In this document: piece after piece, positions 2,395 through 32,402 of the stretch
Layout: the number at the start of each line of letters is the position of its first letter
How positions within the stretch are numbered: position 1 is the first letter of the stretch
DNA from: a bacterium
Lineage (GTDB): Bacteria; Actinomycetota; Thermoleophilia; Solirubrobacterales; Solirubrobacteraceae
Length of the DNA stretch: 32,402 nt
Assembly: GCA_021323635.1 (NCBI GenBank)
Contig: JAJPKQ010000045.1
Coordinates: 1-32,402, forward strand
Direction of reading: 5' to 3'
Translations under genes and position numbers: made by a program
Notes under the pieces: model-generated
The model's input: only the letters and a program-made list of their open reading frames with translations
Told to the model about the DNA's origin: nothing
The model's database searches: none

Positions 2395-3000
2395 GTGTTC
2401 TCGGTCCGCATCCACGGACGCGGCGGGCAGGGCGTCGTCACAGCCGCAGAGCTGCTCTCGCTGGCGGCATTCGGGGGCGGCTCCTTTGCGCAGGCGTTCC
2501 CGTCCTTCGGATCCGAGCGCATGGGTGCGCCCGTGGCCGCCTTCTGCCGCATCGATCAGGAGCCGATACGCCTGCGCGAGCCCATCGAGGAGCCTGACGC
2601 GGTGATCGTGGCCGACGCAACGCTCGTGCACCAGGTGGCGCTCTTCGAGGGCCTGCGCGAGCATGGCCTCCTGCTGATCGCCTCGGCGCGCACCCCGCAG
2701 GAGCTGGGCATCGCAGAGCTCGGCGCGGGGGGCGGGCGAGTGCTGCAGTGCGTCCCCGCCCGGGAGCTCGCGCTCAGACACCTGGGACGCCCGATCCCAA
2801 ACGTCGCCCTGCTCGGCGCCTTCGCCGCGCAGACCGGCGTGATCGACCTGCCTGCGCTGGAGCGGGCGATCGACGGCCGCTTCGCGGGCGCAGCCGCTGA
2901 AGGAAACAGGGCGGCCGCAGCGGCCGCATACTCCTGGCTGCTCGAGCACAGCGTCGGCGGCGCACCCCCACTTGCGAGCGCCGGCCGGGAGGGACGGTAG
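2395..3000 (+). CDS. porG: 2-oxoacid (pyruvate):ferredoxin oxidoreductase, gamma subunit
   Basis: Gamma (domain III) subunit of the multi-subunit thiamine-diphosphate oxidoreductase that interconverts pyruvate + CoA + oxidised ferredoxin with acetyl-CoA + CO2 + reduced ferredoxin in the cytoplasm. The N-terminus carries the family signature RIHGRGGQGVVTAAELL (about residues 5-21), followed by SFGSERMGAPVAAFCRI. At 201 residues it matches the usual gamma-subunit length. It starts with GTG immediately after the ppsA stop (zero spacing) and is followed 6 bp later by the alpha subunit, so translation is probably coupled. The substrate is inferred as pyruvate from the PEP synthase neighbour. A 2-ketoisovalerate or 2-oxoglutarate enzyme cannot be excluded from sequence alone. 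Confidence 0.9.
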   Translation: MFSVRIHGRGGQGVVTAAELLSLAAFGGGSFAQAFPSFGSERMGAPVAAFCRIDQEPIRLREPIEEPDAVIVADATLVHQVALFEGLREHGLLLIASARTPQELGIAELGAGGGRVLQCVPARELALRHLGRPIPNVALLGAFAAQTGVIDLPALERAIDGRFAGAAAEGNRAAAAAAYSWLLEHSVGGAPPLASAGREGR

Positions 3001-3006
3001 AGCGCG

Positions 3007-5363: not shown

Positions 5364-7084
5364 GCGAGCGCCCGTTCGCGATCACCCTTGAGGTCGGCTC
5401 CAGTCGCGCCAACCACACCGGCTCCTGGCGCAGCGAGCGCCCCGAATACGTGCGCCGGATGCCCCCCTGCAATGCCGCCTGCCCGGCGGGCGAGGACATC
5501 CAGGGCTGGCTCTATGAGGCCGAGGCCGGCGGCGGCGGCTACCACTCCGCCTGGCGGGCGCTGGTGGCGGTCAATCCGCTCCCGGCCGTGATGGGCCATG
5601 TCTGCTTCCACCCCTGCGAGGAGGCGTGCAACCGCCTCGCGCTCGATGAGGCGGTGGGCATCAACGCCGTGGAGCGCTTTCTGGGCGAGGAGGCGATCAG
5701 GCGCGGCTGGGAGCCGCCCTCCCCGGCCCAGCCCAGCGGGCGGCGCGTGCTCGTGGTGGGCTCGGGCCCGGCGGGACTCTCCGCCGCCTGGCAGCTTGCG
5801 CTGCGCGGCCACCACGTCACGCTGCGCGAGCGCTCAAAGCAGCCTGGCGGCATGATGCGCTACGGCATCCCCGCCTACCGCCTGCCGCGCAGGACCTTGG
5901 ACGCCGAGATCGAGCGCATCACCGCGCTCGGCGTCCAGATCGAGTGCGGCCAGCGGGTCGGAAGCCTCGCTTACGCCCTGCAGGAGGGCGCATTCGATGC
6001 GGCCTTCCTGGCCCTCGGCGCTGATGTCGCCCACCACATCGACATACCTGGCGCGACCGCCGCGCGGGTGATCGACGCCGTCGCCTTCCTGCACGCGACC
6101 GCAGAGGGCCAAGCGCCCGTGCTCGGCCGGCGTGTGGTCGTCTACGGCGGCGGCGACACGGCGCTCGATGCCGCGCGCACCGCAGCGCGTCTCGGCCACG
6201 GGGCGGGATCGCTGCCGGCGCCTCAGCCGCTCGCGGGCGCTCCCGGCGCTCAGGAAGACCCGGGCGGCGAGGCGCCTCCGGCGCCGCAGGAGCCCGTGGT
6301 CGTATACCGCCGCACCGCCGAGCGCATGCCGGCGCACCCGCAGGAGCTCGCGGAAGCCAGGGAGGAGGGGATCTCCTTCCGCTGGCTCTCGACGATCGCA
6401 GCCGCGCGCGGAGAGCGCCTGGTGCTCGAGCGCATGCGCCTGGACGAGCAGGGCATGCCGCAGCCGACGGGCGAGCTGGAGGAGCTGCCCGCTGACTGCG
6501 TCATCCTGGCGCTCGGCGAGGAGCCGGACCTCACGCCGCTGCAAGGGCTCGACGGCGTCATCGGTGAGGATGGCCGCGTGGCGGTGAACGAGGCGATGAT
6601 GACCGCCAGGCCGGGGCTCTTCGCGGGCGGGGACCTGATCGCGCAGGAGCGCAACGTCGCGGTCGCGGTCGGGCACGGGCGCCGCGCTGCGCGCTCGATC
6701 GATGCCTACCTGCGTGGCTTTGCGATGCCGGGCGAGGAGGCGCCAGAGCCGGTCGCCTTTGCCGATCTCAACCCCTGGTACTTCACCGATGCGCCGCGCC
6801 AGGTCGCCCCCAAGCTCGCGCGCATCCGCCGCCAGAGCACCTTCGAGGAGGTCGTGCTCACCCTGGCGGAGGACTCCGCGCTCTATGAGGCCAGGCGCTG
6901 CTTCTCCTGCGGCAGCTGCTTCTCCTGCGACAACTGCTATGGCGTCTGCCCGGATGACGCCGTGCTGAAGCCCGGCCCCGACGGCTCGCCATACGCGATC
7001 GACCTCGACTACTGCAAGGGCTGCGGGATGTGCGCCGCGGAGTGCCCCTGCGGCGCGATCGCGATGGTGCCTGAGCAGACGTAG
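5360..7084 (+). CDS. GltD-like NAD(P)H:acceptor oxidoreductase fused to 2[4Fe-4S] ferredoxin (POR delta-like)
   Basis: A flavoprotein of the glutamate-synthase small-subunit family (574 residues) with a ferredoxin tail. The N-terminal Fe-S domain has PPCNAACP (Cys37, Cys41) and CFHPCEEAC (Cys82, 86, 90). The FAD Rossmann motif is VVGSGPAGLSAA (about 132-143) and the NAD(P)H motif is VYGGGDTALDAA (about 261-272). A C-terminal FAD segment containing LFAGGD follows. The last 61 residues hold two CxxCxxCxxxCP clusters (Cys520/523/526/530 and Cys552/555/558/562), plus extra cysteines at 514, 517 and 564. The ferredoxin part resembles the PorD delta subunit missing from the operon. The likely role is passing electrons between NAD(P)H and the POR complex; a glutamate-synthase role is unlikely because no large subunit is nearby. 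About 33 Pro/Ala/Gly-rich residues (about 280-312) interrupt the nucleotide-binding domain. The start overlaps porB as ATGA. Confidence 0.85.
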   Translation: MSERPFAITLEVGSSRANHTGSWRSERPEYVRRMPPCNAACPAGEDIQGWLYEAEAGGGGYHSAWRALVAVNPLPAVMGHVCFHPCEEACNRLALDEAVGINAVERFLGEEAIRRGWEPPSPAQPSGRRVLVVGSGPAGLSAAWQLALRGHHVTLRERSKQPGGMMRYGIPAYRLPRRTLDAEIERITALGVQIECGQRVGSLAYALQEGAFDAAFLALGADVAHHIDIPGATAARVIDAVAFLHATAEGQAPVLGRRVVVYGGGDTALDAARTAARLGHGAGSLPAPQPLAGAPGAQEDPGGEAPPAPQEPVVVYRRTAERMPAHPQELAEAREEGISFRWLSTIAAARGERLVLERMRLDEQGMPQPTGELEELPADCVILALGEEPDLTPLQGLDGVIGEDGRVAVNEAMMTARPGLFAGGDLIAQERNVAVAVGHGRRAARSIDAYLRGFAMPGEEAPEPVAFADLNPWYFTDAPRQVAPKLARIRRQSTFEEVVLTLAEDSALYEARRCFSCGSCFSCDNCYGVCPDDAVLKPGPDGSPYAIDLDYCKGCGMCAAECPCGAIAMVPEQT

Positions 7085-7121
7085 CGGCTGCGCCCGCGGT
7101 CGCCCGCCTGCGGCCGTTCGC

Positions 7122-9479
7122 TCAGCGGCGGTGGATCCCGAGGCGCGCAAAGAGCGGCGCCTTGATCGCGTCGACGATCAGCATGCCGAGCACCGCGGTG
7201 CCGAGCAGCGCCGCCAGCGGGGCCGGGGCGATGGGCGAAAGCAGCGCGCCGGCGAGCGCAAGCGCGCTGAAGGCGACCAGGTCCAGGAGCGTGGCCGCCA
7301 GCAGCCAGCGACCGGGCGCCGCGCTCCAGAACCGACCTGCGACGCGCACGAGGTAGACGGTCGCCTGGCTCTGGAAGAGGAGCGTCAGGAAGGCAAAGGT
7401 CTGCAGGCTGGCGCCATGAAGCGCCGGCCACAGATCGCGGGCGAGCACAACGATCGCGATCGCCGCCGCCAGCAGCGGCAGCGCCACAACGAGCGAGCCC
7501 GCCAGCAGCTCGCGGTTGCGCCACCGTTCCGGGCCGCGCGACTGCGCCGCCCGATCGGTCACGATCGCAAGGCTCACAAAGTCGTTGCCGAGCAGCAGCA
7601 GCGCCATCAGCAGCGGCGTGAACAGGAAGCTGCCCCAGGCAAAGACGCCGAACGCCAGCAGCAGCGGGACCTCGATCTTCTTCGATGCCACGTTCAGCGC
7701 ATAGGTGACAGAGCGCTGATGGATCCGCCGGCCGCTCTGCACCATCGCCACCAGATCGGCGATGCCCTCGCTTGTCAGAACCACGCTTGCGGCCTGCTTG
7801 GCGACGTCGGTGGCGCTGGCCACAGCCACCCCGACCTCGGCCTGACGCAGCGCGGGCGCATCATTGACGCCATCGCCGGTCATGCCGACAACATGACCCT
7901 GCGCCTGCAGCAGCTTGACAAGCTCAAGCTTGTCTTCAGGAAGGACCTCGGCGACAACTGCAGGCGGCTCTGCGGGAGGCGGCCCGGCGTGCAGGTCCCC
8001 GACGCGCACGCTCGCGCCGCTGATCCCGACCTCCGCCGCGATCGCCTGCGCTGTGGGCAGGGTGTCCCCGGTCAGCATCACCACGCGCACGCCAAGCGCG
8101 TGCAGCTGCTCGATCAGCTCACGAGCATCTGCTCGAGGCATGTCGCGCAGCGCCAGCAGGCCGAGCAGGCTCGGCGTGCCCTCACCGACGCCCGCCGCCA
8201 CCGCCAGCACGCGCGAGCCGTTTGCGGCAAGCCGCTGCACGCGCGCGGAGAGCCTGGCGTCGTAGCCGCCCGCAAGGGAGGCGATCACCTGCGGCGCGCC
8301 CTTCATCACCCTCAGCAACGCGCCATCCTCTTCAACGGTCGCTTCCGAGCGCTTGCTGGCGGGATCGAAGGGAACGAACGCGGTGCGCACGAGCCCGCCG
8401 CCGCCCTCCTGCTGCGCAGCGGCGAGCACCGCGAGGTCGAGCGGATCCTGAGTCGCCGGGTCGCTCGCTGCCGCCGCGAGCGCAAGCACGCGCTGCGGCG
8501 CGATTGCGTGGAGCGCTTCGATGCGGTCCAGGTGAAGGTGATTGGTGGTGATCGTGCCGGTCTTGTCGACACACAGCACATCCATCGCCGCAGCCTCCTG
8601 CACCGCGGACATGCGCGTCACCAGGATGCCCGCACGGGCCAGCTCGACGGCGCCCAGCGCGCTTGCCAGCGTGAAGGCCGCCGGCAGCGCCACCGGCACT
8701 GAAGCAAGCAGCAGCACAAGCGCGAAGCTCACGACGTCCCGCGCGGGCCTGCCCTGGGCGAGCGCCAGGCCGACCACCGCAAGCGCCACCAGGCCGTCGA
8801 ACGCGATGAACCAGCGCACGAGGCCGATGACGACCGCTTCCAGATGGGAGGCGGTGCGCGCGGTGCGCACAAGCTCGGCAGTGCGCCCGAAGTATGTATC
8901 TGCACCGGTGGCAAGAACGGTGCCGCTCGCCTCGCCCGCTGCGACGATCGAGCCGCTGTAGAGGGTCGCGCCCGGCGCGACTTCGGCAAGCAGCGACTCA
9001 CCGGTCAGCGCCGAGTTGTCGACCGAGACCTCCCCCTCGCTCAGCTTTATGTCGGCCGGAACCACATCGCCAGCGCGCACGTGCACGAAGTCGCCCGGAA
9101 CCACCTCCGCGGCGGCGACCAGTCGCCAGCGTCCCTGGCGCCGCACGCGCGCCTGCACCTGCAGACGGGTTCGCAGCAGCGCCACAGCGGCGCTTGCGCG
9201 CGACTCCTGAAACAGCCCGATCGCGACGTTCACGACCAGCACCGCCGCGACGATCCCCGCTTCCAGGAGGTGGCCGAGCACCAGCTCGAGGGCCACGGTC
9301 GCCTCAAGCATCCAGGGCACCGGCGCCCATAGCCGTCCAAGCGCCTGGCGCCATCGCGATTCGCGTTCCGGGGCGACCTCGTTGCGGCCGTGCTCGACTA
9401 GGCGACTGCGGGCCTCGCTCTCGCTCAGCCCCGGGGGCTCCGCTGCGCTCTGCTGAAAGCCGGCCGCCAAGGTGGCCAC
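7122..9479 (-). CDS. P3A-type plasma-membrane H+-transporting ATPase
   Basis: A P-type ATPase of the proton-pump (P3A) class, ATP-driven and in the cytoplasmic membrane. Family landmarks in order: PVPWMLEA at the first membrane helix (about 53-60); the actuator motif TGES (159-162); PVALP in M4 (about 262-266); the phosphorylation site DKTGTIT with Asp305; KGAP (about 393-396) in the nucleotide domain; TGDTLPTA; and the hinge GDGVND (about 535-540). The M6 region reads LLGNDFVSLAIVTD, matching the Asn-Asp pair used for proton transport. At 785 residues it has the core architecture without the long C-terminal autoinhibitory tail of plant pumps. The start is GTG at 9479 with no strong Shine-Dalgarno; conserved sequence (GLSESEARSRL) begins 17 residues in. 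It is convergent with the POR operon (37-bp gap) and divergent from the PRTase gene. A divalent-cation P-type ATPase is less likely given PVPWMLEA and the M6 sequence. Confidence 0.9.
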   Translation of the reverse strand: MATLAAGFQQSAAEPPGLSESEARSRLVEHGRNEVAPERESRWRQALGRLWAPVPWMLEATVALELVLGHLLEAGIVAAVLVVNVAIGLFQESRASAAVALLRTRLQVQARVRRQGRWRLVAAAEVVPGDFVHVRAGDVVPADIKLSEGEVSVDNSALTGESLLAEVAPGATLYSGSIVAAGEASGTVLATGADTYFGRTAELVRTARTASHLEAVVIGLVRWFIAFDGLVALAVVGLALAQGRPARDVVSFALVLLLASVPVALPAAFTLASALGAVELARAGILVTRMSAVQEAAAMDVLCVDKTGTITTNHLHLDRIEALHAIAPQRVLALAAAASDPATQDPLDLAVLAAAQQEGGGGLVRTAFVPFDPASKRSEATVEEDGALLRVMKGAPQVIASLAGGYDARLSARVQRLAANGSRVLAVAAGVGEGTPSLLGLLALRDMPRADARELIEQLHALGVRVVMLTGDTLPTAQAIAAEVGISGASVRVGDLHAGPPPAEPPAVVAEVLPEDKLELVKLLQAQGHVVGMTGDGVNDAPALRQAEVGVAVASATDVAKQAASVVLTSEGIADLVAMVQSGRRIHQRSVTYALNVASKKIEVPLLLAFGVFAWGSFLFTPLLMALLLLGNDFVSLAIVTDRAAQSRGPERWRNRELLAGSLVVALPLLAAAIAIVVLARDLWPALHGASLQTFAFLTLLFQSQATVYLVRVAGRFWSAAPGRWLLAATLLDLVAFSALALAGALLSPIAPAPLAALLGTAVLGMLIVDAIKAPLFARLGIHRR

Positions 9480-9634: not shown

Positions 9635-11124
9635 ATGACCACGCCCACGCAGAGCCCGCAGGAGCGCCGAGGCGATCTCGGCGAGTCGCTGCTCGGCGGT
9701 CCGCTGCCCAAGCGCTGGAGCACCGCCCTCTACGCCGACCGCCATGACGCCGGCCGGCGTCTGGGGGCCCTGCTCGCCGATCGGCGCTTTGAAGATCCGC
9801 TCGTGGTCGGGATCGCGCGCGGCGGCATGCCCGTCGCCGCAGAGGTCGCTCATGCGCTGGGGGCACCCCTCGACATCGTCATCGTGCGCAAGATCGGCGC
9901 GCCCTGGAACCGCGATCTTGCGATCGGCGCCGTTGCCGAGGGCGACCTGGTGATGGTCGACGAGCGCGCGGTCGCGGAGCTCGGTCTCTGCGCGCAGGAG
10001 GTCGATGAGGCCGTCGCGAGGGCGCTCGAGGAGCTCGCCCGCACGATCGATCGCCTGCGCGAGGGCAGGCCGCGGATCGGTGTCCGCGGACGCTCCGTGA
10101 TCCTCGTCGATGACGGGCTGGCGACCGGGCGCATAGCGCAGGCTGCGATCCGCGCGCTGCGCGAGCGCGGCGCCCTGCACATCACCCTTGCCCTGCCCGT
10201 CGGCGCCCCCGAGTCAGTCCAGGCGCTCGCCGACAGCGTCGATGAGGCCCTCTGCGCGGCGACCCCCCAGCACCTGCGCGCGATCGGCGACTGGTACGCG
10301 GACTTTCGCGCCACCAGCGACGAGGAAATGCTCGCGCTGCTTGCCGGGCACAGCGGAGCCGCCGCCCGCAGCGCCCTGATCAGCTCAGAGCCGGGGATCT
10401 CGGCGCACGGCGATCTCATCGTCCCCTGGAGCGCACCCGGCCACGGGGTGATCGTGTTCGCGCCATCAGGCCCCTCACACGCCGAAGCGCAGCTGACCGC
10501 AGAGCTGGCCGGCGTGCTCGAGCGCTCAGGCTTTGGCACGCTCAGCCTCGACTGGCCGCAGATCGACTCGCCATCCCGGGGCGAGCGCAGCGAGGATGTG
10601 CAGATCACCGCGCAGCTGATGCGCGCCGCCACAGACTGGCTGCGCAGCCAGCCCGAGAGCGCGCGCCTGCCGATCGGCTACGTCGGCGGCGGCGCCGGCG
10701 CGGCGGGCGCGCTGGTGGCGGCGGCGCAGCTGCGCAGCGCCCTCGGGGCGCTTGTCGCGCTTGCCCCGCGGCTGGAGCTGACCGGCGGCGCGATCGCGCT
10801 GCTTGAGGCGCCCACGCTGCTGGTCGTCCCCGAGCAGGACCGCGAGCTGCTTGCGATCTGTCATGCAGCGCGCGAAGCGATGCAGTGCGAGAGCCGCATC
10901 GCCCTGCTTCCGGGCCGCTCGCCGCTCGCTCTCGACAGGCGTGCGCGAGAGTCGCTCGCGCCGATCGTCACCGACTGGCTCGCGCGCCACATCAGCGCGA
11001 TGACCCAGCCTCCCGGCGGGGCCGCCTACGCATGCTCTGCCCCTGAGCGCGCCGCGCCGGCCCGATCTGTTATCTCTGGCGCACGGACCGATCCGCGCGA
11101 CAACCCGCAGCTGCCCCTGCCGGG

Positions 11125-11128
<4 letters not shown>
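9635..11128 (+). CDS. Phosphoribosyltransferase fused to a degenerate dienelactone-hydrolase-like domain
   Basis: Two-domain protein of 497 residues. The first 230 or so form a type I phosphoribosyltransferase with VVGIARGGMPVAAEVA (about 57-72), RKIGAPWNRDLAIGAV, and the PRPP-binding loop VILVDDGLATGRIA (about 155-168). The rest is an alpha/beta-hydrolase fold of the dienelactone hydrolase type, a fusion known in actinobacteria. Here the nucleophile elbow reads GYVGGGAGAAGA (about 348-359), with Gly353 where Ser is expected in GxSxG. The usual C-terminal GATH-type His segment is replaced by LPGRSPLA (about 425-432). The PRTase part therefore looks intact while the hydrolase part is probably not catalytic. 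The substrate is unknown. The start ATG is preceded by GGAAGGCAGAGG. The stop TGA overlaps the putative CTG start of nadE, so the two are probably expressed together. Confidence 0.82.
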
Positions 11129-13248
<2,120 letters not shown>

Positions 13249-13463
13249 CCTACGCGAGAGCGCAACCCCACAGCCGACTCGTCCCAGCCGGCGCACGTGG
13301 CAGGCCTGCGAGCGCACAGGCGGCCATCGCTCTCGAGCGCATGCAACCACGCCCCGCCTACGGGGTATCTCCGGAAGTGCCGCGGTCCTCACAACGTCAT
13401 TCTGCGCCCATGGCCGACGCTGGAGAGCCCGCGCAAGCGGCGGTGATGCGCTGATGCGCAGCG

Positions 13464-14477
13464 GTGGAGCCGCGGGCGTCACCTACGGCGCCCAGGGAGG
13501 TCTCGACGAGACAGTGCAGGGGACCTCGGCGTGAGCTTCACAGACAGCGACGGGCGAAGGGCTTCGCCATAGACGCGATCGAGTCAAAGACGGCTGTGCT
13601 CCATGGCCACGCGGTCACCTATGCGCAGGCGGGCAGCGGGCCGTTGCTGCTCCTGATCCACGGGATCGCAAGCACCTACGAGAGCTGGCGGGAGGTGATC
13701 GGGCCGCTCGCGCAGAGGCACACGGTGATCGCGCCCGACCTGCCCGGCCACGGCAGCTCGGAGCCGGCCGGCGGCGACTACTCCCTCGGCGCGCTCGCCG
13801 CCGGCCTGCGCGACCTGCTGATCGCGCTTGGCCACGATCGCGCAACGCTTGTAGGGCATTCTCTGGGCGGCGGAGTCGCAATGCAGCTCGCCTATCAGTT
13901 CCCGGAGATCACCGAGCGCCTGGTGCTCGTCTCAAGCGGCGGCCTCGGCTGGGAGGTCAGCCGCATCCTGCGCGCCGCCGCGCTCCCAGGCGCGAATCTC
14001 TTCATCGCCGCGACAGCCGGAGCGGGGCGCAAGGCGGGTTCCGCGGCGGCGCGTGGACTTGCCGCGATCGGGCTGCGACCGAGCGCGGACCTCAGCGAGA
14101 TCGCGCGCGGATATGCCTCCCTCGCCGACCCTGCTCGCCGCGCAGCCTTCCTGGCGACGCTGCGCGCCGTCGTTGACACCGGCGGCCAGCACGTCAACGC
14201 CGGGGACCGCCTCTACCTCGCTGAAGACCTGCCGGTGCTGATCATGTGGGGGGAGCGAGATCCCATAATTCCCGCGCTCCATGGTGAGGCGGCCCACCGC
14301 GCCATTCCGGGCAGCCGCCTTGAGATCTTCGACTGCGTCGGTCATCTGCCACAGCTAGAGGCGCCGGCGCGGTTCGTCGCGGTGCTGGAGCAGTTTCTGG
14401 CCGCGACCAAGCCGGCGGAGTGGAATGCGAGCCGGTGGCGCGCCCGGCTGGCGGCCGCCAGCCACGATGCGGCCTAA
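13464..14477 (+). CDS. Alpha/beta-fold hydrolase
   Basis: A cytoplasmic serine hydrolase of the alpha/beta superfamily, substrate unknown. Visible features are the oxyanion-hole LLLIHGIASTYESW, the nucleophile elbow VGHSLGGGVAMQLA, the acid in MWGERDPIIPALHG, and the catalytic His in CVGHLPQLEAP. Core length is about 300 residues, as usual for single-domain members with a cap. The start is unsure. GTG 13464 gives about 35 residues of unconserved basic sequence before the fold begins near AIDAIESKTAVLHGH. GTG 13596 would be too late. A GTG at 13531 opens a short frame (VSFTDSDGRRA) that would join the body only after a one-base shift near 13562. It lies 215 bp after nadE on the same strand and converges on the minus-strand pncB. 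Confidence 0.82.
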   Translation: MEPRASPTAPREVSTRQCRGPRRELHRQRRAKGFAIDAIESKTAVLHGHAVTYAQAGSGPLLLLIHGIASTYESWREVIGPLAQRHTVIAPDLPGHGSSEPAGGDYSLGALAAGLRDLLIALGHDRATLVGHSLGGGVAMQLAYQFPEITERLVLVSSGGLGWEVSRILRAAALPGANLFIAATAGAGRKAGSAAARGLAAIGLRPSADLSEIARGYASLADPARRAAFLATLRAVVDTGGQHVNAGDRLYLAEDLPVLIMWGERDPIIPALHGEAAHRAIPGSRLEIFDCVGHLPQLEAPARFVAVLEQFLAATKPAEWNASRWRARLAAASHDAA

Positions 14478-14612
14478 AAAGAGGCGATTGCTGACCCGAC
14501 CTGAGGCGCGGGGAGGCTCCCTGCGCCGCCTGGACCCACGGGCCACCGACGCTCTCCCCCGCCTCGGTGAGGGGCAGCTGCACGCAGCACCGAGCGCTAG
14601 ACCAGCCCTTCG

Positions 14613-16151
14613 CTACCGCTCGCGCTGCGCCGGGCCGGGCGCGTGCGCAAGGCAGCCGCCGAGCGCCACCGGGTAGGGGCGGCGACGCACGCCGGGGGGC
14701 TCGATGCGGCGCAGCTCAGGAGGCAGCTCGCCGAGGCTCGAGCAGGCGCGCTCTCGCATCGCCTCGAGCTGCTCATGGCGCAGCTGCCTGCCGGCCTCTA
14801 CGTAGGGGACGAGCAGCGGTCGCACCTCATCGTCGCGCTCGCCGCGAAGCTCGGCCGCGGCCGCCTCGACGTCCTCCAGCGCCACGATCAGGTCCTCCTG
14901 CATCGTGCCCTCGCGCAGGCGACGCAGCACCTGCTTGACGCCCGGCAGCGTCTCCTTGGCGACCGAGCGCTTGCGCACGCCGCGCCAGCTGCCATCCACC
15001 CGCTCGGCAACGAGCTTGTAGACGCCGCCCACGGTCGGCGCATCCCTGCTCACGCCCAGCTCCGTCCCAACCCCATAGAGGTCGATCGGCGCGCCCGCGG
15101 CGACCAGGCGCGCGATCTGCTGCTCCTCAAGGTCGCCGCTGGCGATGATGATCGCCGCCTGCATGCCCGCCTGATCGAGCATCGCTCGTGACGCGCGCGA
15201 GAGCTCGAGCAGATCGCCGGAGTCGAGCCGAATACCCCCGAGCGCGATCCCGGTCGCACGCGAGGCCGCGATCGCGCTTGCAACGCCCTGCAGCGTATCG
15301 TAGGTATCGACAAGCATGATCGCGTTGGCCGGGAAGTCGCGCATGAAGGCGACAAAGGCCTCCTCCTCGGTGGGGAAGGAGAGGACATAGGAGTGCGCCA
15401 TGGTGCCGGATGGGCGCAGGCCGTAGCGAAGCGCAGCGGCGAGGTTCGAGGTGGCCGCCACGCCCGCGATCGCCGAGGCCCGCGCAGCCTTCATCGCAGC
15501 GTCCACCCCATGATCGCGGCGCGGGGAGAAGTCCATCACCCGCGCCCCGCCGCCAGGGCGACCGCCGCCCGCAGCCAGGACGATTCGCGCCGCCTTGGTG
15601 GCGATCGCGGTCTGGAAGTTGATCTGGTTGAGCAGGATCGTCTCGATCAGCTGAGCCTCGATGCGCGGAGCGATCACCCGCAGCAGCGGCTCCCCCGCAA
15701 AGACGACGGTGCCCTCCGGGACCGCGTGCACCTGGCCGCTGAAGCGAAGCGATCCCAGATAGGCAAGAAAGTCACCCTCAAAGCCCTGCTCCTGCAGGTA
15801 TGCGCGCTCGGCCGGGCCGAAGCGCATGGCACGCACAAGCGCAAGCGCCGGGCCGAGGCCTGCCGCAAGCAGCCACTGGCGGCCGGCCGGCAGCGAGCGC
15901 ACGAACAGCTCGAAGGCAACCGGCTCATTCATCCCCCGGCGGAAGTAGCTTGCCGCCATCGACAGCTCATAGCTGTCGATCAGCAGCGCAGTCTGGGCGG
16001 GGCTCAGCAGGCCGGGGTCGTCCGCGCCGCCGGGGCGCAAGGCGCCGGCCACGCCGAAAGCGCGAGCCCAGTCATCCTCTGCGGCTCTCGGCCGCTGACC
16101 AGTTTGGCGGTCGTTCCCTGAGGGGCAGCGCTCACGCTTCGACACATCCAT
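14613..16151 (-). CDS. pncB: Nicotinate phosphoribosyltransferase
   Basis: Converts nicotinate + PRPP (+ ATP) to nicotinate mononucleotide in the Preiss-Handler NAD salvage route. Visible are the N-terminal LIDSYELSMAASYFRRGM, VMDFSPRRDHGVDAAMKAAR, the GTMAHSYVLSF segment with the regulatory phospho-His, and GGIRLDSGDLLELSR. IDLYGVGTELGVSRDAP follows near the C-terminus. I start at ATG 16151 (512 residues), 8 bp after the stop of the upstream kinase gene, rather than at 16238, which would overlap that gene by about 80 bp. About 50 residues precede the family core. It is the last gene of the minus-strand run Hsp20-kinase-pncB. Its product feeds, via NadD, the NAD+ synthetase encoded about 1.4 kb away on the opposite strand. 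Nicotinamide phosphoribosyltransferase is less likely given the motifs. Confidence 0.92.
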   Translation of the reverse strand: MDVSKRERCPSGNDRQTGQRPRAAEDDWARAFGVAGALRPGGADDPGLLSPAQTALLIDSYELSMAASYFRRGMNEPVAFELFVRSLPAGRQWLLAAGLGPALALVRAMRFGPAERAYLQEQGFEGDFLAYLGSLRFSGQVHAVPEGTVVFAGEPLLRVIAPRIEAQLIETILLNQINFQTAIATKAARIVLAAGGGRPGGGARVMDFSPRRDHGVDAAMKAARASAIAGVAATSNLAAALRYGLRPSGTMAHSYVLSFPTEEEAFVAFMRDFPANAIMLVDTYDTLQGVASAIAASRATGIALGGIRLDSGDLLELSRASRAMLDQAGMQAAIIIASGDLEEQQIARLVAAGAPIDLYGVGTELGVSRDAPTVGGVYKLVAERVDGSWRGVRKRSVAKETLPGVKQVLRRLREGTMQEDLIVALEDVEAAAAELRGERDDEVRPLLVPYVEAGRQLRHEQLEAMRERACSSLGELPPELRRIEPPGVRRRPYPVALGGCLAHAPGPAQRER

Positions 16152-16159
16152 CTTAGCGC

Positions 16160-17770
16160 TCACCGCCGCCGCGATCTGGCCGGCGCGTCGATCGCCGGCC
16201 CGCGCCGCAGCGCCTCCAGGCGCAGGTCGATCGCGCATTGCACCGCCGCCAGCTGGGCCGAGAGGGGGCGGTCAGAGCGAATCGACAGATGAGCGGCCGC
16301 GGCAATCTCGTCCATCGGCTCAAAGCTTGCAAGCTCCTGGGCGACGACCGCGGCGCCTGCGTCCGAGAGGCGCTCGGGGTCGCGCTCGCGGCGGCGTGCG
16401 CGCGCCAGCAGCACCGCGGCCGGCGCGCGACACTCGACAAAGAGCATCGGCGCGTCGCTGCCCAGCGCCTCCAGGAAGGCGGCTCGCTCAGCGGCTCGGC
16501 GGCAGGTGGCGTCGACCAGCGCTCCACCATCGGCCTCCAGCGCTCGCCGTGCCTCCTCACCAAGCTTGCTGTAGACGCTAAGGCTCCGCTGCGGGGAGTA
16601 GAGCTCGAGCGGAGCGCGAGCCTGGGGCGGGAGCCCGGCCATGCGCTTGCGCAGGAGATCGCTTGCGAGCACCGGCAGCCCCGACGCCCGCCGCAGCCGC
16701 GCAACCAGGCTCGACTTGCCGGCGGCCGGCAGGCCGCAGACCACGATCACGAGCGGCGCACGGGCACGCCAGGCAGAGCGCTCCGCGCGGGCGATCCACC
16801 GCTCCGCGACGCGGCGGCGATCGCCAGCGGCCGCCCCCGTGAGCTGAGAGGCGCGCAGCAGCGCAACCTTGGCCGAGACGAGGGCGCGAAAGCACTCATA
16901 GAATGCGATCAGCTCAGCTGGCCCCGCATCGCCGCCCGCGCGCTTGTATGCCTCAAGCAACCGGTGCGCAAGAGCGTGCGCGCCGCGCGACTTCAGATCG
17001 ACCAGGAGAAACGCCAGCTCATCGGCGACATCGAGCTCGCGCAGCGATCTGTCAAACTCGATCCGGTCGACGATTCGCAGCCCGGCTGGATCGAACAGCA
17101 CGTGGTCGGCACGCAGGTCGCCGTGGAGCTCGCGAATCGCCCCTGCCCGGGCGCGGGCGCCGATCAGCGCGGCGCGCGCTCGCAGGAAGGCGGCGCTGAA
17201 GCGGGCGAGCGCCGCCACGCGCGCGGCGAGCTGCGGGCGCTCGCAGAGCGCCAGCAGCTCGCCGACATTGCGAAGCACGCGCACAGCGCACTGCTCCCTC
17301 GGTGCTCTAATGCCGGAAACCCGCGCCGCGCGCTGATGGAAGTCGACAAGCGCCTCCGCCAGCGCCTGGAGCCCCTCTTCGAGAGGCGCGCCAGCCGAGA
17401 GCAGAGACGCCAGCGTGTGGCGCTCGTCGTAGCGACGCATCACCACGACGTAGTCGAGCGCTTCCGGATCCGCCTCGGCGCCGATGCGCACTCCTCGCCG
17501 CCCGCGCGCCAGGACCGACCCGACGCCGAGGTAGATGTCGCCCGCCAGCTCTCGATTGACCCGCACCTCCTCGGCGCATGCCGCGTGGCGGCGCTCGCGG
17601 GTCGAGTAATCGAGAAACGGCAGCGTGAGCGGCTTCTTGAGCTTGTAGGCGCGCTCGCCGGCGAGGAACACCCACGAGCCGTGTGTCTCGCGCACCTGCA
17701 CCGATCGAGGGCGCGGAGCGTAGCTCGACGGGCGCGAGAGCGCTGCGAGCAGCCAGCCCGCCTCGCTCAG
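16160..17770 (-). CDS. Bifunctional APH-like kinase / P-loop (AAA) kinase-like protein
   Basis: Two-domain protein seen in many bacteria (the COG2187 + COG0645 fusion type); physiological substrate unknown. The N-terminal aminoglycoside-phosphotransferase-like fold has ELHGDLRADHVLFD (catalytic Asp about 218) and RIVDRIEFD as the metal-binding segment. The C-terminal P-loop domain has Walker A GLPAAGKS (about 346-353), ASDLLRKRMAGLP and LVDATCRR, resembling small-molecule kinases such as gluconate kinase. GTG 17701 is the first conventional start. However, family-like sequence continues upstream (LLAALSRPSSYAPRPRSVQVRETHGSW) to CTG 17770, which overlaps the Hsp20 stop as CTGA and has GGAG five bases before it; I therefore extend to 17770 (536 residues). 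It sits between hsp20 and pncB with an 8-bp gap to the latter. Confidence 0.85.
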   Translation of the reverse strand: MSEAGWLLAALSRPSSYAPRPRSVQVRETHGSWVFLAGERAYKLKKPLTLPFLDYSTRERRHAACAEEVRVNRELAGDIYLGVGSVLARGRRGVRIGAEADPEALDYVVVMRRYDERHTLASLLSAGAPLEEGLQALAEALVDFHQRAARVSGIRAPREQCAVRVLRNVGELLALCERPQLAARVAALARFSAAFLRARAALIGARARAGAIRELHGDLRADHVLFDPAGLRIVDRIEFDRSLRELDVADELAFLLVDLKSRGAHALAHRLLEAYKRAGGDAGPAELIAFYECFRALVSAKVALLRASQLTGAAAGDRRRVAERWIARAERSAWRARAPLVIVVCGLPAAGKSSLVARLRRASGLPVLASDLLRKRMAGLPPQARAPLELYSPQRSLSVYSKLGEEARRALEADGGALVDATCRRAAERAAFLEALGSDAPMLFVECRAPAAVLLARARRRERDPERLSDAGAAVVAQELASFEPMDEIAAAAHLSIRSDRPLSAQLAAVQCAIDLRLEALRRGPAIDAPARSRRR

Positions 17771-25910: not shown

Positions 25911-28157
25911 GTGGCGGCGATGAGGCGCATCAGCGCGCTCGTCTGCGCGCACCCCCGGCGCATCCTTGGCGGCGCCGCAGCGCTGCTCGTGCTCGCTGCG
26001 ATCTTCGGGGCACCGCTGATCTCGATTCTGAGCACCGCCCTCTCGGACTTTGAAAGCTCCTCCACGCAGACATATCACGCGGCGCGGCTGATCGAACGGG
26101 CGACCGGCGCTCAGGACGACGTCGGCTTTGTCGTGCTTGTCAAGAGCGCCGAGCCGGTGCGCAAGAGCAGGCAGGCCTTTGACGTACTCGCCGAAATCAC
26201 GCGACTGCTTGCCAAGCAGCCGGGCATTCGCTCCGCGCTTGACTACCCGCGCACCTTCGACCCCGAACTGCTCTCCAGGAACGGCCGCGAAGCGCTCATC
26301 CTGGCCACCTTCTCCACGCGCTCGCGCTCCTACGAAGCCGCCCAGCGCCTGCGGCGGGCGATCCGCGCGCGCGGCGGGCGGATCAGCGGCCTGGACATCG
26401 TCTTTGAAGAGCTCACGCGCCGCTCGCGCAGCGATCTCGTCCACGCGGAGCTCTACGCGGCGCCGATCCTCGTGGCGCTCTCGCTGCTGCTCTTCGGCGG
26501 CCTGGTCGCAGCGCTGCTTCCGCTCCTGGTCGGCGTGCTTGCCGTGCTCTTCACCTTCCTGTGCCTGCGCGTCGTGCAGCAGGCGCTCGGCCTCTCGGTC
26601 TTTGCGCTCGACCTCGTGATCGCGGTTGGCCTCGGGCTGGCGGTCGACTACAGCCTCTTCGTCCTCGCCCGCTTCCGTGAAGAGCTCGCATCCGCAACGG
26701 CCGACTGCGCGCGCTTGACGCAGGCGCCTGAGGGCAGCGGTGGCGCGCTCGGGCGTCCCTCCCCCGCGGTGCGCAGGATCGCGATCGAGCGCACGCTTGC
26801 GAGCGCCGGGCGCACGGTGCTCTTCAGCTGCCTCACCGTCGCCTGCGCGCTTGCCTCGCTGTGCGTCTTCCCGCTGCCCTTCCTCTACTCGATGGGGGTC
26901 GCGGGCATCTTCACCGCGCTTGTCGCCGGCACCGTCGCGCTGCTCGTGCTGCCCGCGGCGCTCTACCTGCTCGGCGACCGCGTCAACGCGCTCTCGCTGC
27001 GGCGCTCGGCGACTCGCGGCCGCGAGGCAGCGGGGGGCAGGGACCTCTGGGCGCGCCTGGCGAGCGCTGTGATGCGCCGGCCGGGCACCGTCGCGCTGCT
27101 CTCCGGAGGAGTGCTGCTTGCGGCGGGCAGCCCTGTCTTCCAGATGGGCCTCACCCCCGCCTCCGCCGCGCTGCTGCCGCCCGGCACCGAATCGCGCCAG
27201 GTCGAGGAACGCATCGAACGCAACTTCGAAACCAACCCCGCGCTGCCGATCGCGGCGGTGGTCGAGGCCAAGCCGACCGAATTCCAGTCCGTCTACGAAT
27301 ACGCGCAGGCGGTCGCGCGCGCCAGCGGCGATCCCAGGCACGCTCACCTGCTCAACCTGAAGGGGTCGACCTGGCTGGTCGCGATCACCCCGCGTGGAGA
27401 TCCCTTCGGCGCCGCCAACGAAGCGGCTGTCGCGCGCATGCGCGCGGTGCGCTCCGCTCATCCGACGGCGGTGGGCGGGATCACCGCGTGGTTCCACGAC
27501 GAGCTTGAAAGCGTCGCCGGCAACCTCCCCTACGCGATCCTGATCGTCGCCCTGACGATGTTCCTGATGGTCTTTGCGCTGACCGGCTCGCTGCTGCTGC
27601 CGCTCAAGACGCTGCTGATGAACCTGCTCACGCTCTCGGTCGCGACGGGCGCCCTCGTGCTCTGCTTTCAGAGCGGCCTGCTGGCGGCGCCCCTGCACTT
27701 CAGGGGCAACGGCGGCCTTGAGCCAGCGAACCTGATCCTCCTCTACACCGTCGCCTTCGCGCTCGCTAGCGACTACGGCGTCTTCCTGCTCGCGCGCATC
27801 CGCGAGGCGCATGACTCCGGGCTCTCAAACCGCGAGGCTGTGGCGCTCGGGATGCAGCGCACAGGCCACCTGATCACAGCCGCAGCTGCACTCTTCTGCG
27901 TCGCGGTCGCCGCGCTGTGCACCTCCTCGATCCTCTCCATCAAGGAGCTTGGCTTCGGCGCGGCCTTTGCGGTCGCGATCGATGCGACGATCGTCCGCGC
28001 GCTGCTCGTGCCCTCGCTGATGGCCCTGCTGGGGGACTGGAACTGGTGGGCGCCGGAGCCGCTGCGGCGCCTCCATGCGCGCCTGGGCCTGCGGGAGTCA
28101 GGCGCGGGGCTCCCGCGCGGGGAGGAGGCGCAGGCGCTCTCCGGGCAGCTGCCCTGA
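25911..28157 (+). CDS. MMPL/RND-family membrane transporter
   Basis: A secondary transporter with two homologous halves, each containing an N-terminal helix, a soluble domain and five further helices, driven by the proton gradient. The helix-borne Asp-Tyr pairs expected for proton coupling are present: LGLAVDYSLFVLARFREEL (Asp246) and FALASDYGVFLLARIRE (Asp621). Helices include LGGAAALLVLAAIFGAPLIS and ILVALSLLLFGGLVAALLPL. 748 residues, normal for single-chain MMPL proteins. The start is GTG 25911 or ATG 25920; neither has a good Shine-Dalgarno. The substrate (lipid, terpenoid or drug) is unknown. Glu is encoded by GAA in 16 of 34 cases, almost all before 27510, unlike neighbouring genes where GAG dominates. 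It is convergent with the second MMPL gene (35-bp gap). Confidence 0.88.
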   Translation: MAAMRRISALVCAHPRRILGGAAALLVLAAIFGAPLISILSTALSDFESSSTQTYHAARLIERATGAQDDVGFVVLVKSAEPVRKSRQAFDVLAEITRLLAKQPGIRSALDYPRTFDPELLSRNGREALILATFSTRSRSYEAAQRLRRAIRARGGRISGLDIVFEELTRRSRSDLVHAELYAAPILVALSLLLFGGLVAALLPLLVGVLAVLFTFLCLRVVQQALGLSVFALDLVIAVGLGLAVDYSLFVLARFREELASATADCARLTQAPEGSGGALGRPSPAVRRIAIERTLASAGRTVLFSCLTVACALASLCVFPLPFLYSMGVAGIFTALVAGTVALLVLPAALYLLGDRVNALSLRRSATRGREAAGGRDLWARLASAVMRRPGTVALLSGGVLLAAGSPVFQMGLTPASAALLPPGTESRQVEERIERNFETNPALPIAAVVEAKPTEFQSVYEYAQAVARASGDPRHAHLLNLKGSTWLVAITPRGDPFGAANEAAVARMRAVRSAHPTAVGGITAWFHDELESVAGNLPYAILIVALTMFLMVFALTGSLLLPLKTLLMNLLTLSVATGALVLCFQSGLLAAPLHFRGNGGLEPANLILLYTVAFALASDYGVFLLARIREAHDSGLSNREAVALGMQRTGHLITAAAALFCVAVAALCTSSILSIKELGFGAAFAVAIDATIVRALLVPSLMALLGDWNWWAPEPLRRLHARLGLRESGAGLPRGEEAQALSGQLP

Positions 28158-28192
28158 GCGAGCCCTCTCTGCCCCGCGCGGGCGCCGGCTGC

Positions 28193-30391
28193 TCAGGCGA
28201 CCTCCACCGGCTCGGCCTGGGGGCGCACGGGATAGGCCGGCGCTGCGGCGCTGGGCGCCGCCGCAGCCTGCCCGTGGCCGAAGTGCACCGCCGGCAGCAG
28301 CCTGCGCATGAAGCTCGGCAGATACCAAGCGGAGGATCCCAGCAGGCGCAGGGCGACAGGCAGCAGCAGCAGCCGCACGAGCGCCGCGTCCAGCAGCACC
28401 GCGACGCCCAGGATGATCCCCATCTCCTTGGGCGGCAGCGGCCCGGAGAGCGCGAAGGTGAAGAAGACCGCCACCATCACCGCCGCAGCGGCAAAGATCA
28501 CCCGGCCAGAGTGCGCGACGCCGCCGACCATCGCCGCGCGCGCGTCGCCCTCGGTCTCCCAGTGCTCCTTGGCGCTTGAGAGCAGGAAGACGGTGTAGTC
28601 CATCGAGATCGCAAAGATCATCGCGAAGAAGAAAACCGGCCCCCAGGCATCGAGGAAGCCCTGGGGCGTGAAGCCAAGCAGCGAGTGCAGCACGCCATCC
28701 TGGAAGACCCACTTTGCAACGCCGAAGGCGGCGCCGCTCGCAAGCAGGTTTGTCAGGACGCCGACCGCCGCCAGCGCGGGGGTCTGCAGCGCGATCAAGA
28801 GCAGGATGAAGCCGAGCGCGAGCACCACCCCGATCACGAGCGGCGTGCGCGCCGAGAGCGCGCTCTGCAGCGCGTGGTCTTCGGCGACCGCGCCGCCGAT
28901 CAGCGAGCCGCGCGGCAGGCTCCTGCTCAGCTGATCGATCAGCGCTCCGACCCTCGGTGAGGAGGGGTCGGCCGCGGGTATCGCGCTGTAGAGGACATGG
29001 CCGCCCGCCAGCTGCGGCGCGGAGACCGCAGCGATGCCGGGCTGAGCCTTGAGGGTGGCTGCAACGGCGCTTGACTCCGCGCTCGGCGCGACCACCTGCA
29101 GCGGCCCGGTCGCTCCCGGGCCGAATGCGGCCTGGACCTGCTCGTAGCCGATGCGCGATCCCGCGCTGCTTGGCACGACCTTGATCGATGGCATCGCGGT
29201 GCGCAGCGTCAGGACGCCGCTCGCGAGCACGATCAGCGCCGCCAGCGCGGGCAGCCCGAAGCGCAGCGGCGTCTTCCACAGGCGCTGCCCCCAGGCTGCG
29301 AAGCGCACCGAGCGGTGCTCGCCGGAGTGAACCCAGGGCAGGGCGTAGCGATCGACGCGGTCGCCCAGTCGCGCGAGCACCGCCGGCAGCAGCGTCAGCG
29401 TCGCGGCGAGCACGAAGATCACCGCCAGCATGATCCCGAGGCTCATCGAGCGGAAGGCCGGGCTTTCGACGAGCATCACCGCGCTCAGCGAGACGAGGAC
29501 GGTCAGGCCGCTGAAGAGCACCGCCTTGCCGGCGGTGTCCATCGTGATCCCCGCGGCCTCGCTTGGCGAGAGGTGGGAGCCGAAGCGGGCGCCGCGGAAG
29601 CGGTTGACGATGAACAGCGCGTAGTCGATCCCCAGCGCCAGCGCGAACATCAGCGCGAAGTTCATCGCCCAGATCGAGATCGGCGCGATCAGCGTGCCGA
29701 GGTAGAGGGAGCCTGCGGCGGCAAGGAGGCCGAGCAAGGTCAGCATCAGCGGCAGGCCGGCCGCAACCAGCGACCCGAAGGCAAGCAGCAGGATCGCGAG
29801 CGTGACCGGCCAGGAGAAGACCTCAGAGCGCAGCATCGCGGAGCGGTTGGCTTCGTTGAAGTCAGACCACATCCCCGCGGCGCCGGTCAGGTGCACTTCG
29901 ACGCCCGCGCGCGCATCTGCGCTCAGCCTGCTCTTGAGTGTGCCGGCCGCCGCAACCATCGCGTTCGGGTTGCTGCCCGCCCCGGCGGTCACGATCGCAG
30001 TGTGGCCATCCGCAGATATCGTCCGGCCCGCGAGGGGCGCATAGACTCCGCGCACATCCTTGCTCGCCGCAAGCGTGTGCTCGACGCTCGCAAGCACGCG
30101 CGCGAACGCAGGCGAGGAGGCGTTCAGGCTGCGCGAGTGCACGACCACCTCGAGCGCGTAGCTGGAGCTGCCGCCGAAGTCGCGGTTGACGATCTGCCGC
30201 GCCTGCGAGGAGGCCGATCCGCTGGCTTCCCAGCCGGCTCCGGAGAGGGCTCTCTCCACGCGCGGGGCAAAGAAGCCGAGGCCGATCGCGATCAGCACCC
30301 AGACCGCCGCCACCGCACGGAAGTGGCTGGCGGTGAACAGGCCCAGGCGCCCGATCGGGCCCAGCTGCTGCGTGAGAGGCTTGCCTTCCAT
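28193..30391 (-). CDS. MMPL/RND-family membrane transporter, divergent from an ArsR regulator
   Basis: Second RND-type transporter, 732 residues in the same two-half architecture. Proton-relay signatures are LALGIDYALFIVNRFRG (Asp256) and FAISMDYTVFLLSSAKEH (Asp598). SGRVIFAAAAVMVAVFFTFALSG and PPKEMGIILGVAVLLDAALVRLLLLP are typical last-half helices. The proline/alanine-rich C-terminus (QAAAAPSAAAPAYPVRPQAEP) is probably a disordered cytoplasmic tail. ATG 30391 is chosen because AAAGGAG lies about 10 bases upstream; a start at 30421 would place that Shine-Dalgarno inside the gene. The divergent ArsR-type repressor, 125 bp away, probably controls it. The substrate is unknown, and identity to the neighbouring MMPL protein is low by eye, so they do not look like a recent duplication. 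Confidence 0.9.
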   Translation of the reverse strand: MEGKPLTQQLGPIGRLGLFTASHFRAVAAVWVLIAIGLGFFAPRVERALSGAGWEASGSASSQARQIVNRDFGGSSSYALEVVVHSRSLNASSPAFARVLASVEHTLAASKDVRGVYAPLAGRTISADGHTAIVTAGAGSNPNAMVAAAGTLKSRLSADARAGVEVHLTGAAGMWSDFNEANRSAMLRSEVFSWPVTLAILLLAFGSLVAAGLPLMLTLLGLLAAAGSLYLGTLIAPISIWAMNFALMFALALGIDYALFIVNRFRGARFGSHLSPSEAAGITMDTAGKAVLFSGLTVLVSLSAVMLVESPAFRSMSLGIMLAVIFVLAATLTLLPAVLARLGDRVDRYALPWVHSGEHRSVRFAAWGQRLWKTPLRFGLPALAALIVLASGVLTLRTAMPSIKVVPSSAGSRIGYEQVQAAFGPGATGPLQVVAPSAESSAVAATLKAQPGIAAVSAPQLAGGHVLYSAIPAADPSSPRVGALIDQLSRSLPRGSLIGGAVAEDHALQSALSARTPLVIGVVLALGFILLLIALQTPALAAVGVLTNLLASGAAFGVAKWVFQDGVLHSLLGFTPQGFLDAWGPVFFFAMIFAISMDYTVFLLSSAKEHWETEGDARAAMVGGVAHSGRVIFAAAAVMVAVFFTFALSGPLPPKEMGIILGVAVLLDAALVRLLLLPVALRLLGSSAWYLPSFMRRLLPAVHFGHGQAAAAPSAAAPAYPVRPQAEPVEVA

Positions 30392-30427
30392 TGGAGTGCT
30401 CCTTTCTAGGTCACAACTCAATCGTGG

Positions 30428-30516: not shown

Positions 30517-30870
30517 ATGGCGACGACCGAGCCGATCCCCCATCCGATACCTGAGCCCCTGCTGGAGCTGATCGCCAAGCGCTTCCGCGTGCTTGCCGAG
30601 CCGATGCGGATCCGCCTGCTCGATCGGCTGCGCGAGGGCGAGGCGACGGTAGGCGAGCTGCAGGAGGCGCTCTCGGCCTCGCAGCAGAACGTCTCCAAGC
30701 ACCTCGGGATCCTGCTGGAGGCGGGCATGGTCAGCCGCAGCAAGCGCGGCAACCATGCCTACTACGCGATCGCCGACGCCAGCGTCTTTGCGCTCTGCGA
30801 GCAGGTCTGCGGTGGGGTGCGCAAGCAGCTCTCAGAGCTTGAAGCTCTGCTCGGCGGGCACGCGCTTTAG
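30517..30870 (+). CDS. ArsR/SmtB-family winged-helix transcriptional regulator
   Basis: 117 residues, a dimeric DNA-binding repressor by family. The fold is clear: RFRVLAEPMRIRLLDRLREG, the helix-turn-helix TVGELQEALSASQQNVSKHLGIL (about 44-66), and the wing SRSKRGNHAYYAIAD. The alpha-3 metal site of classical ArsR/SmtB (ELCVCDL) is absent. Instead Cys94 and Cys98 (FALCEQVCGG) form a CxxxC pair in the C-terminal dimerisation helix, a possible thiol or metal sensor. ATG 30517 is used: there is no Shine-Dalgarno, but the promoter boxes position it at the transcription start. The gene is divergent from the MMPL transporter, its most likely target. It ends 62 bp before the CRISPR array. Confidence 0.9.
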   Translation: MATTEPIPHPIPEPLLELIAKRFRVLAEPMRIRLLDRLREGEATVGELQEALSASQQNVSKHLGILLEAGMVSRSKRGNHAYYAIADASVFALCEQVCGGVRKQLSELEALLGGHAL

Positions 30871-30904
30871 AGCGCGCCACCAGCCGCCGCTGAGCTATCC
30901 CTTT

Positions 30905-30928
30905 GGCGCCCGACCACCTGCGGGCGCC
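30905..30928. terminator. GC-rich hairpin between arsR and the CRISPR array
   Basis: GGCGCCCG (30905-30912), 8-base loop, CGGGCGCC (30921-30928): a perfect 8-bp stem ending 3 bp before the first repeat. There is no T-run on either strand, so it is not a canonical intrinsic terminator. Its position would suit ending arsR mRNA or, on the minus strand, the CRISPR precursor. Confidence 0.45.
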
Positions 30929-30931
30929 GCG

Positions 30932-32402
30932 CCTTCAACGGAGCCGGAGACTTACGTCTCCGGTGACGCTGGCGGCGTGGATCAGGGGCGGATGGGGCGG
31001 CGTGCTTCAACGGAGCCGGAGACTTACGTCTCCGGTGACGGCCGACGAACTGCTGCGCCCACAGAGTATGGAGGCGCTTCAACGGAGCCGGAGACTTACG
31101 TCTCCGGTGACCCGCTGCGGCTCGTAGGTCGCCAATTCACAGACGGGCTTCAACGGAGCCGGAGACTTACGTCTCCGGTGACGATCTGCGCAGCTCGCCT
31201 GCTCCCTCGGAGGTTCGGCTTCAACGGAGCCGGAGACTTACGTCTCCGGTGACGGACCGTCCTGCGGGCGCGCCGCCAGCGGATCTTCCGGCTTCAACGG
31301 AGCCGGAGACTTACGTCTCCGGTGACAGGCTTGGCGGCACGATTGGAACGTCATCGCTCAGGCGCTTCAACGGAGCCGGAGACTTACGTCTCCGGTGACT
31401 TAGACCGAAGGGAGCAGTTGTGAGTAGTGAGACGGCTTCAACGGAGCCGGAGACTTACGTCTCCGGTGACTGCTATACTGGGAACCCAGTCTCTCCTCCC
31501 TTCGCAGCTTCAACGGAGCCGGAGACTTACGTCTCCGGTGACTAGTGCGGGAAGTCAATGAGCTTGCGCGCCGAAACGCTTCAACGGAGCCGGAGACTTA
31601 CGTCTCCGGTGACGTTTCCGGGCTGGCGGTAGCCGAGATGGTGTCGCCGTGCTTCAACGGAGCCGGAGACTTACGTCTCCGGTGACCAGGAGTTCACCGG
31701 CTGGCGGTGGGCTTTAGTCAAGCTTCAACGGAGCCGGAGACTTACGTCTCCGGTGACGAGCACGTCCCGGTCAAGCTGCACATCGACGAAATGGCTTCAA
31801 CGGAGCCGGAGACTTACGTCTCCGGTGACCGGGGATCACAGGTGAATGATGGACGAGACGCCTGAGCTTCAACGGAGCCGGAGACTTACGTCTCAGGTGA
31901 CCAGCTGCGGGGGTGCTGGCGAGGGCGCTTGCTGTGATGCTTCAACGGAGCCGGAGACTTACGTCTCCGGTGACACCGCAAAGCAGGTTCAGGTCATCGC
32001 GGAGGTAGCGCTTCAACGGAGCCGGAGACTTACGTCTCCGGTGACAAGGATGAAGCGGAAGTGTGCGATCGCGCAACCGTGCTTCAACGGAGCCGGAGAC
32101 TTACGTCTCCGGTGACGGGTGCCCCGTACTTTCAACATGCTCGTGCGCATCGAGGCTTCAACGGAGCCGGAGACTTACGTCTCCGGTGACATCGGGTCCT
32201 AATCGTCAGCTCCACTGGTTCCGGGCTTCAACGGAGCCGGAGACTTACGTCTCCGGTGACGAGGTCGATTAGCCGCATCGAGCGCGACAGGCTCGCGCTT
32301 CAACGGAGCCGGAGACTTACGTCTCCGGTGACACCAGGCGTGGATCCTGCAGCTTTCACGTGTGGACGCTTCAACGGAGCCGGAGACTTACGTCTCCGGT
32401 GA
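30932..32402. CRISPR. CRISPR array: 21 repeats of 36 bp, 20 spacers, open at the right window edge
   Basis: On the + strand each repeat begins GCTTCAACGGAG, has hairpin arms CCGGAGAC and GTCTCCGG around TTAC, and ends TGAC. Repeats start at 30932, 31004, 31076, 31147, 31218, 31291, 31364, 31435, 31507, 31578, 31651, 31722, 31794, 31866, 31939, 32010, 32081, 32155, 32225, 32297 and 32368 (the last lacks its final base at the edge). Spacers are 36,36,35,35,37,37,35,36,35,37,35,36,36,37,35,35,38,34,36,35 bp and all differ. Repeat 1 has C for G at its first base, and repeat 14 has one base changed in the stem. The reverse complement has a GTAA (GNRA) loop and ends GTTGAAGC, like the 8-nt crRNA handle of type I/III systems. 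Transcription is therefore probably right-to-left with the leader beyond the window. No AT-rich leader exists on the left and no cas gene is in view, so the subtype is undetermined. Confidence 0.98.

What the first reader, a model, noticed from the sequence alone, without database searches (positions are those of the whole stretch)
30932..32402. CRISPR array read right-to-left, with leader and possibly cas genes outside the window
Only the minus-strand repeat gives a CCGGAGAC/GTCTCCGG stem closed by a GUAA (GNRA) tetraloop and a 3' end GTTGAAGC, as in the 5' handles of type I/III crRNAs. On the + strand the loop would be UUAC. The left-most repeat is the one with an altered end base (its handle becomes GTTGAAGG), typical of the leader-distal end. 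The left flank (30871-30931) is GC-rich with no leader-like sequence. The newest spacers are thus expected on the right, beyond the window.
Basis: partly seen in the sequence, partly recalled or inferred. Interest (0 to 1): 0.6.

Follow-up and report, generated by a model that had tools for sequence, protein, structure and literature searches.

The report
Leader-distal part of type I-G CRISPR array

Summary
The array is real: 21 repeats of 36 nt and 20 unique 34-38 nt spacers at 30932-32402, running to the end of the contig (the window is all of contig C1). The same repeat occurs in only one other contig of this genome, C42, which also ends in it. C42 carries a complete type I-G operon (cas3g, cas8g/csx17, cas7g/csb1, csb2, a cas4-cas1 fusion, cas2), then a 182-nt leader, then 9 repeats and 8 spacers. 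The supporting arguments are of mixed value. The 3' handle GTTGAAGC is invariant in seven related repeats and lies 4 nt beyond the stem, as reported for Csb2 cleavage. Altered repeats do cluster at the distal end in relatives. The GNRA-loop argument fails: in relatives with the same orientation the transcribed-strand loop is GCAG, UUAC or UCCG. The leader is AT-rich only relative to the genome (61.5% against about 71% GC). No spacer target was found. New member of a known kind, ordinary.

The parts
30932..32402 (-). Leader-distal part of a type I-G CRISPR array: 21 repeats of 36 nt (the rightmost lacks one base at the contig end), 20 unique spacers of 34-38 nt; inferred pre-crRNA strand is the minus strand
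   Evidence: the same repeat follows cas2 and leader in contig C42
30932..30967 (-). Terminal (leader-distal) repeat, last handle base altered (GTTGAAGG)
31866..31901 (-). Internal variant repeat (position 7 G->T on the transcribed strand, one stem pair broken)
30905..30928 (.). GC-rich inverted repeat GGCGCCCG-N8-CGGGCGCC between the convergent ArsR-type gene and the array end; possible bidirectional transcription stop (no T-run, so only inferred)
   Evidence: 37-nt fold, z -3.6 on the plus strand, -2.2 on the minus strand; no canonical terminator by scan
30517..30870 (+). ArsR/SmtB-type helix-turn-helix regulator, left neighbour of the array, transcribed toward it; not a cas gene

Best explanation
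The window ends inside a type I-G CRISPR array of a Solirubrobacterales-like actinobacterium. The cas operon (cas3g, cas8g/csx17, cas7g/csb1, csb2, cas4-cas1 fusion, cas2) and the leader lie to the right, on contig C42, which breaks off in the same repeat. The window holds the older, leader-distal spacers. New spacers would be added by Cas4/1-Cas2 at the leader-repeat 1 junction on C42. The array is transcribed along the window's minus strand. Csb2 would cut each repeat 4 nt past the hairpin, leaving an 8-nt 5' handle GUUGAAGC, and Cas7g/Cas8g/Csb2 with Cas3 would destroy matching invader DNA. Shown here: array, gene content, order, orientation, leader, hairpin covariation. Inferred: contig adjacency, transcription, cleavage, immunity.
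For: In this genome the repeat matches fall only in C1 and C42 (28 matches), and both contigs end in it. The C42 proteins exceed the NCBIfam cut-offs for cas3_GSU0051 (697.9 vs 400), csx17 (469.5 vs 150), cas7_GSU0053 (75 vs 38), cas5_6_GSU0054 (189 vs 45), cas4g_cas1g (694 vs 560) and cas2 (33.6 vs 24.5). The leader is 182 nt from the cas2 stop to repeat 1, 61.5% GC, and its end is partly conserved in relatives. Arrays in relatives follow the cas4-cas1/cas2 end in the same orientation with the same 3' end CTCCGTTGAAGC. The stem covaries across seven repeats: 5 of 8 pairs changed on both sides, 96.4% of cells paired, 0 of 500 shuffles as high on the covariation score. The 4-nt gap between stem and 8-nt handle equals the published Csb2 cut (PMC9638904). 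Across five relatives' arrays, 28 of 29 variant repeats lie in the leader-distal half. In alignments with relatives, HD-domain residues of Cas3, cysteines of the Cas4 part, candidate Cas1 catalytic residues and C-terminal Csb2 histidines are invariant.
Against: No read or long contig joins C1 to C42, and the flank next to the array in the sister genome G164 is not homologous, so synteny does not confirm the join. No protospacer was found, so the PAM and function are untested. No consensus sigma-70 promoter was found in the leader; the scan is a crude test in a high-GC actinobacterium.
Confidence: 0.93

Rival explanations
1. C1 and C42 hold two separate arrays with the same repeat; the window's array has its own leader on missing sequence and is served in trans by the C42 cas genes.
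For: The number of spacers lost at the break is unknown, and at least one relative (G185) carries more than one array.
Against: The open end of C1 is its leader side and the open end of C42 is its distal side, as one broken array predicts. No other contig carries the repeat.
Confidence: 0.05
2. The array is read left to right (plus strand), with a leader at 30871-30931.
For: The plus-strand repeat folds slightly more stably (-17.9 vs -15.9 kcal/mol).
Against: The left flank is 77% GC, abuts an ArsR-type gene and shows no promoter. The leader and cas2 are on the other side, in the opposite orientation, here and in relatives. The leftmost repeat is the altered one.
Confidence: 0.01
3. The array and its cas genes are no longer used and are decaying.
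For: No matching phage, plasmid or IMG/VR target was found for the spacers tested; two repeats carry point changes.
Against: The repeats are otherwise identical, the cas operon is complete with expected catalytic residues conserved, and phages of this lineage are poorly sampled (own knowledge).
Confidence: 0.03

Closest known systems
Type I-G (formerly I-U) CRISPR-Cas, e.g. Thioalkalivibrio sulfidiphilus (PMC9638904) and Methanosarcina barkeri Cas4/1 (PMC10504553)
   Same: cas3, csx17/cas8g, csb1/cas7g, csb2 (Cas5-Cas6 fusion), cas4-cas1 fusion; 36-nt repeat with hairpin, 4-nt linker and 8-nt handle
   Different: Repeat sequence and spacer set are specific to this organism; the operon is contiguous, whereas T. 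sulfidiphilus has extra genes between csb2 and cas4-1
Type I-G system of the same-genus genome G164 (contig G164:C50, same length as DAHUYQ010000013.1, Solirubrobacterales MAG clean274)
   Same: Cas4/1 77% identical; repeat identical except two loop bases; same gene order and leader position; array also split over two contigs
   Different: Loop GCAG instead of GTAA; different spacers; different distal flank; truncated terminal repeat

Membership tests
Type I-G CRISPR-Cas | Large subunit Csx17/Cas8g | tested here: met
   TIGR04113 469.5 bits, cut-off 150
Type I-G CRISPR-Cas | Csb2 (Cas5-Cas6 fusion) and Csb1/Cas7g | tested here: met
   TIGR02165 188.9 vs 45; TIGR02570 75.1 vs 38
Type I-G CRISPR-Cas | Cas3 with helicase and HD domains of the GSU0051 kind | tested here: met
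   TIGR02621 697.9 vs 400
Type I-G CRISPR-Cas | Cas4-Cas1 fusion and Cas2 next to the leader | tested here: met
   NF049935 694.2 vs 560; TIGR01573 33.6 vs 24.5; order
Type I-G CRISPR-Cas | Repeat hairpin with Csb2 cut 4 nt beyond the stem, giving an 8-nt 5' handle | tested here: inconclusive
   The geometry fits exactly (stem, CTCC, GTTGAAGC) and the stem covaries; cleavage itself not measured. Published rule: PMC9638904
Type I-G CRISPR-Cas | TTN-type PAM next to protospacers | tested here: inconclusive
   No protospacer found in phages, plasmids, IMG/VR (8 spacer seeds) or 232 genomes of the order
Type III CRISPR-Cas | Cas10 and type III RAMP genes by the array | tested here: not met
   The six genes next to the leader are all type I-G or adaptation genes; the rest of the genome was not scanned for Cas10

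The most novel reading that the evidence does not exclude
In this actinobacterial branch of type I-G the 3' tail of the repeat (CTCC + GTTGAAGC) is frozen while stem and loop change by compensatory mutation, so Csb2 may recognise a sequence element beyond the stem rather than the stem-loop sequence.
Probability: 0.35. Interest if true: 0.25.

Novelty: new member of a known kind. Interest (0 to 1): 0.1.

Why it matters
It shows that an orientation guess made from raw repeat sequence alone can be right, and which of its cues were sound (handle, distal repeat decay) and which were not (GNRA loop). The system itself adds one more complete type I-G locus from a little-studied actinobacterial order and a small natural set of covarying type I-G repeats.

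Tried and rejected
Protospacer search: the whole window array against phages and plasmids gave only chance matches (E 0.4); the C42 array against phages gave none; eight 24-nt spacer seeds with every sixth base free gave nothing in IMG/VR. The window array against 232 genomes of the order gave only other CRISPR arrays and weak short matches read as chance; in its own genome it matched only C1 and C42, so no self-target by the window spacers at this sensitivity. Synteny of the distal flank with G164 and G165 to prove the contig join: no homology. Rfam: no match. Folding energy as a strand test: uninformative. Named relatives of Cas4/1: only one found by the pattern scan.

Full report
What is there. 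The right end of the window is a CRISPR array: 21 copies of a 36-nt repeat separated by 20 unrelated spacers of 34-38 nt, from 30932 to the last base. All repeats are identical except the leftmost (last handle base C->G on the minus strand), one at 31866-31901 (G->T in the stem), and the rightmost, which is short by one base because the sequence ends.

Where the rest is. The window is the whole of contig C1 in a 46-contig genome. A search of that genome found the repeat only in C1 and in contig C42, and C42 also ends in a repeat. Reading C42 toward its end: cas3g (788 aa, L010:9590-11956), cas8g/csx17 (L009:1874-4174), cas7g/csb1 (open frame L009:3952-5127, likely start about 4171), csb2 (5131-6543), a cas4-cas1 fusion (6577-8247), cas2 (8255-8551), a 182-nt leader (8552-8733), then 9 perfect repeats with 8 spacers (8734-9342). 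This is a complete type I-G operon. The repeat runs away from the leader in the orientation GTCACC...GTTGAAGC, which is the window's minus strand. C1 lacks its leader-side end and C42 lacks its distal end, so the simplest reading is one array of at least 28 spacers broken by the assembler at a repeat. That the two contigs join is an inference. Synteny could not confirm it, because the flanks of the arrays on the corresponding contigs of the same-genus genomes G164 and G165 are unrelated to the window's.

Handle: across seven related type I-G repeats the last twelve bases CTCCGTTGAAGC are invariant, and the distance of 4 nt from stem to 8-nt handle is what was measured for Csb2 of T. sulfidiphilus (PMC9638904). 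Stem: 5 of 8 pairs show changes on both sides and 96.4% of cells pair, against 21-61% when the partner is slid, so the hairpin appears to be under selection. GNRA loop: not supported as a rule. G164 has GCAG, G185 has UUAC and G078 has UCCG on the same transcribed strand; G165 has GUGA. G185 gives a small independent hint of the strand: a U.G pair in its stem on the predicted transcript would be an A/C mismatch on the other strand. Altered distal repeat: sound; in five relatives' arrays with variant repeats, 28 of 29 variants lie in the distal half. The last repeat's handle precedes no spacer, so its altered base need not matter. Leader: present on the right, but 61.5% GC; it is poor in GC only beside a genome region near 71%. 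Conserved stretches lie just before the first repeat in relatives. Array direction following the direction of the cas genes is also a published criterion (PMC6737040).

How it works (inferred from the family). Cas4/1 and Cas2 insert new spacers at the leader-repeat junction on C42 (directional integration shown for type I-G Cas4/1 in PMC10504553). The transcript runs toward the window, and the window spacers are the oldest. Csb2 cuts the repeats, and the Cas7g-Cas8g-Csb2 complex with Cas3 attacks DNA next to a TTN PAM (PMC9638904). Residues expected at active sites are invariant in alignments with relatives: H582, H613, D614 and others in the HD part of Cas3; cysteines C18, C193, C196, C202 in the Cas4 part; E380, H448, E463 in the Cas1 part; and H381 and H459 near the end of Csb2 (their roles are assigned from family knowledge, not tested). 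No spacer target was found anywhere searched, which leaves the PAM untested.

Verdict. An ordinary type I-G array seen from its old end. In the order, 16 of 232 genomes searched carry a strong match to the Cas4-Cas1 fusion, 10 of them above the family cut-off.

Noticed in passing
L040 (G231), also L039, L041, L042, L044: A second, diverged I-G-like lineage in the same order: Cas4/1 scores below the NF049935 cut-off and repeats end in ATCGAGGC or similar. In G231 a 367-aa protein without a family match (L040:5877-6980) sits between cas3 and cas4-1, none of the six frames scanned hit csx17, and cas3 there is spread over two reading frames.
   Followed up: partly
L044 / G185:C49:41379-42936: G185 carries two different I-G-type arrays on one contig; the second cas4-cas1 gene appears in two pieces (positions 2-307 and 316-546 of the family), possibly broken.
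   Followed up: no
L053 (G164:C14, about record position 33700): The leader-distal repeat of the sister array is truncated: its 3' handle end is replaced by unrelated flank.
   Followed up: no
window 25911-30421: Two large MMPL-family transporter genes lie tail to tail (25911-28157 plus, 28193-30421 minus), next to an ArsR-type regulator.
   Followed up: no
window 112-7084: Cluster of a PEP-utilising/PPDK-like enzyme followed by 2-oxoacid:ferredoxin oxidoreductase subunits and an FeS/FAD oxidoreductase.
   Followed up: no
window 9635-16238: Phosphoribosyltransferase, a carbon-nitrogen hydrolase/NAD synthase fusion and a nicotinate phosphoribosyltransferase within 6.6 kb, suggesting an NAD salvage neighbourhood.
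   Followed up: no
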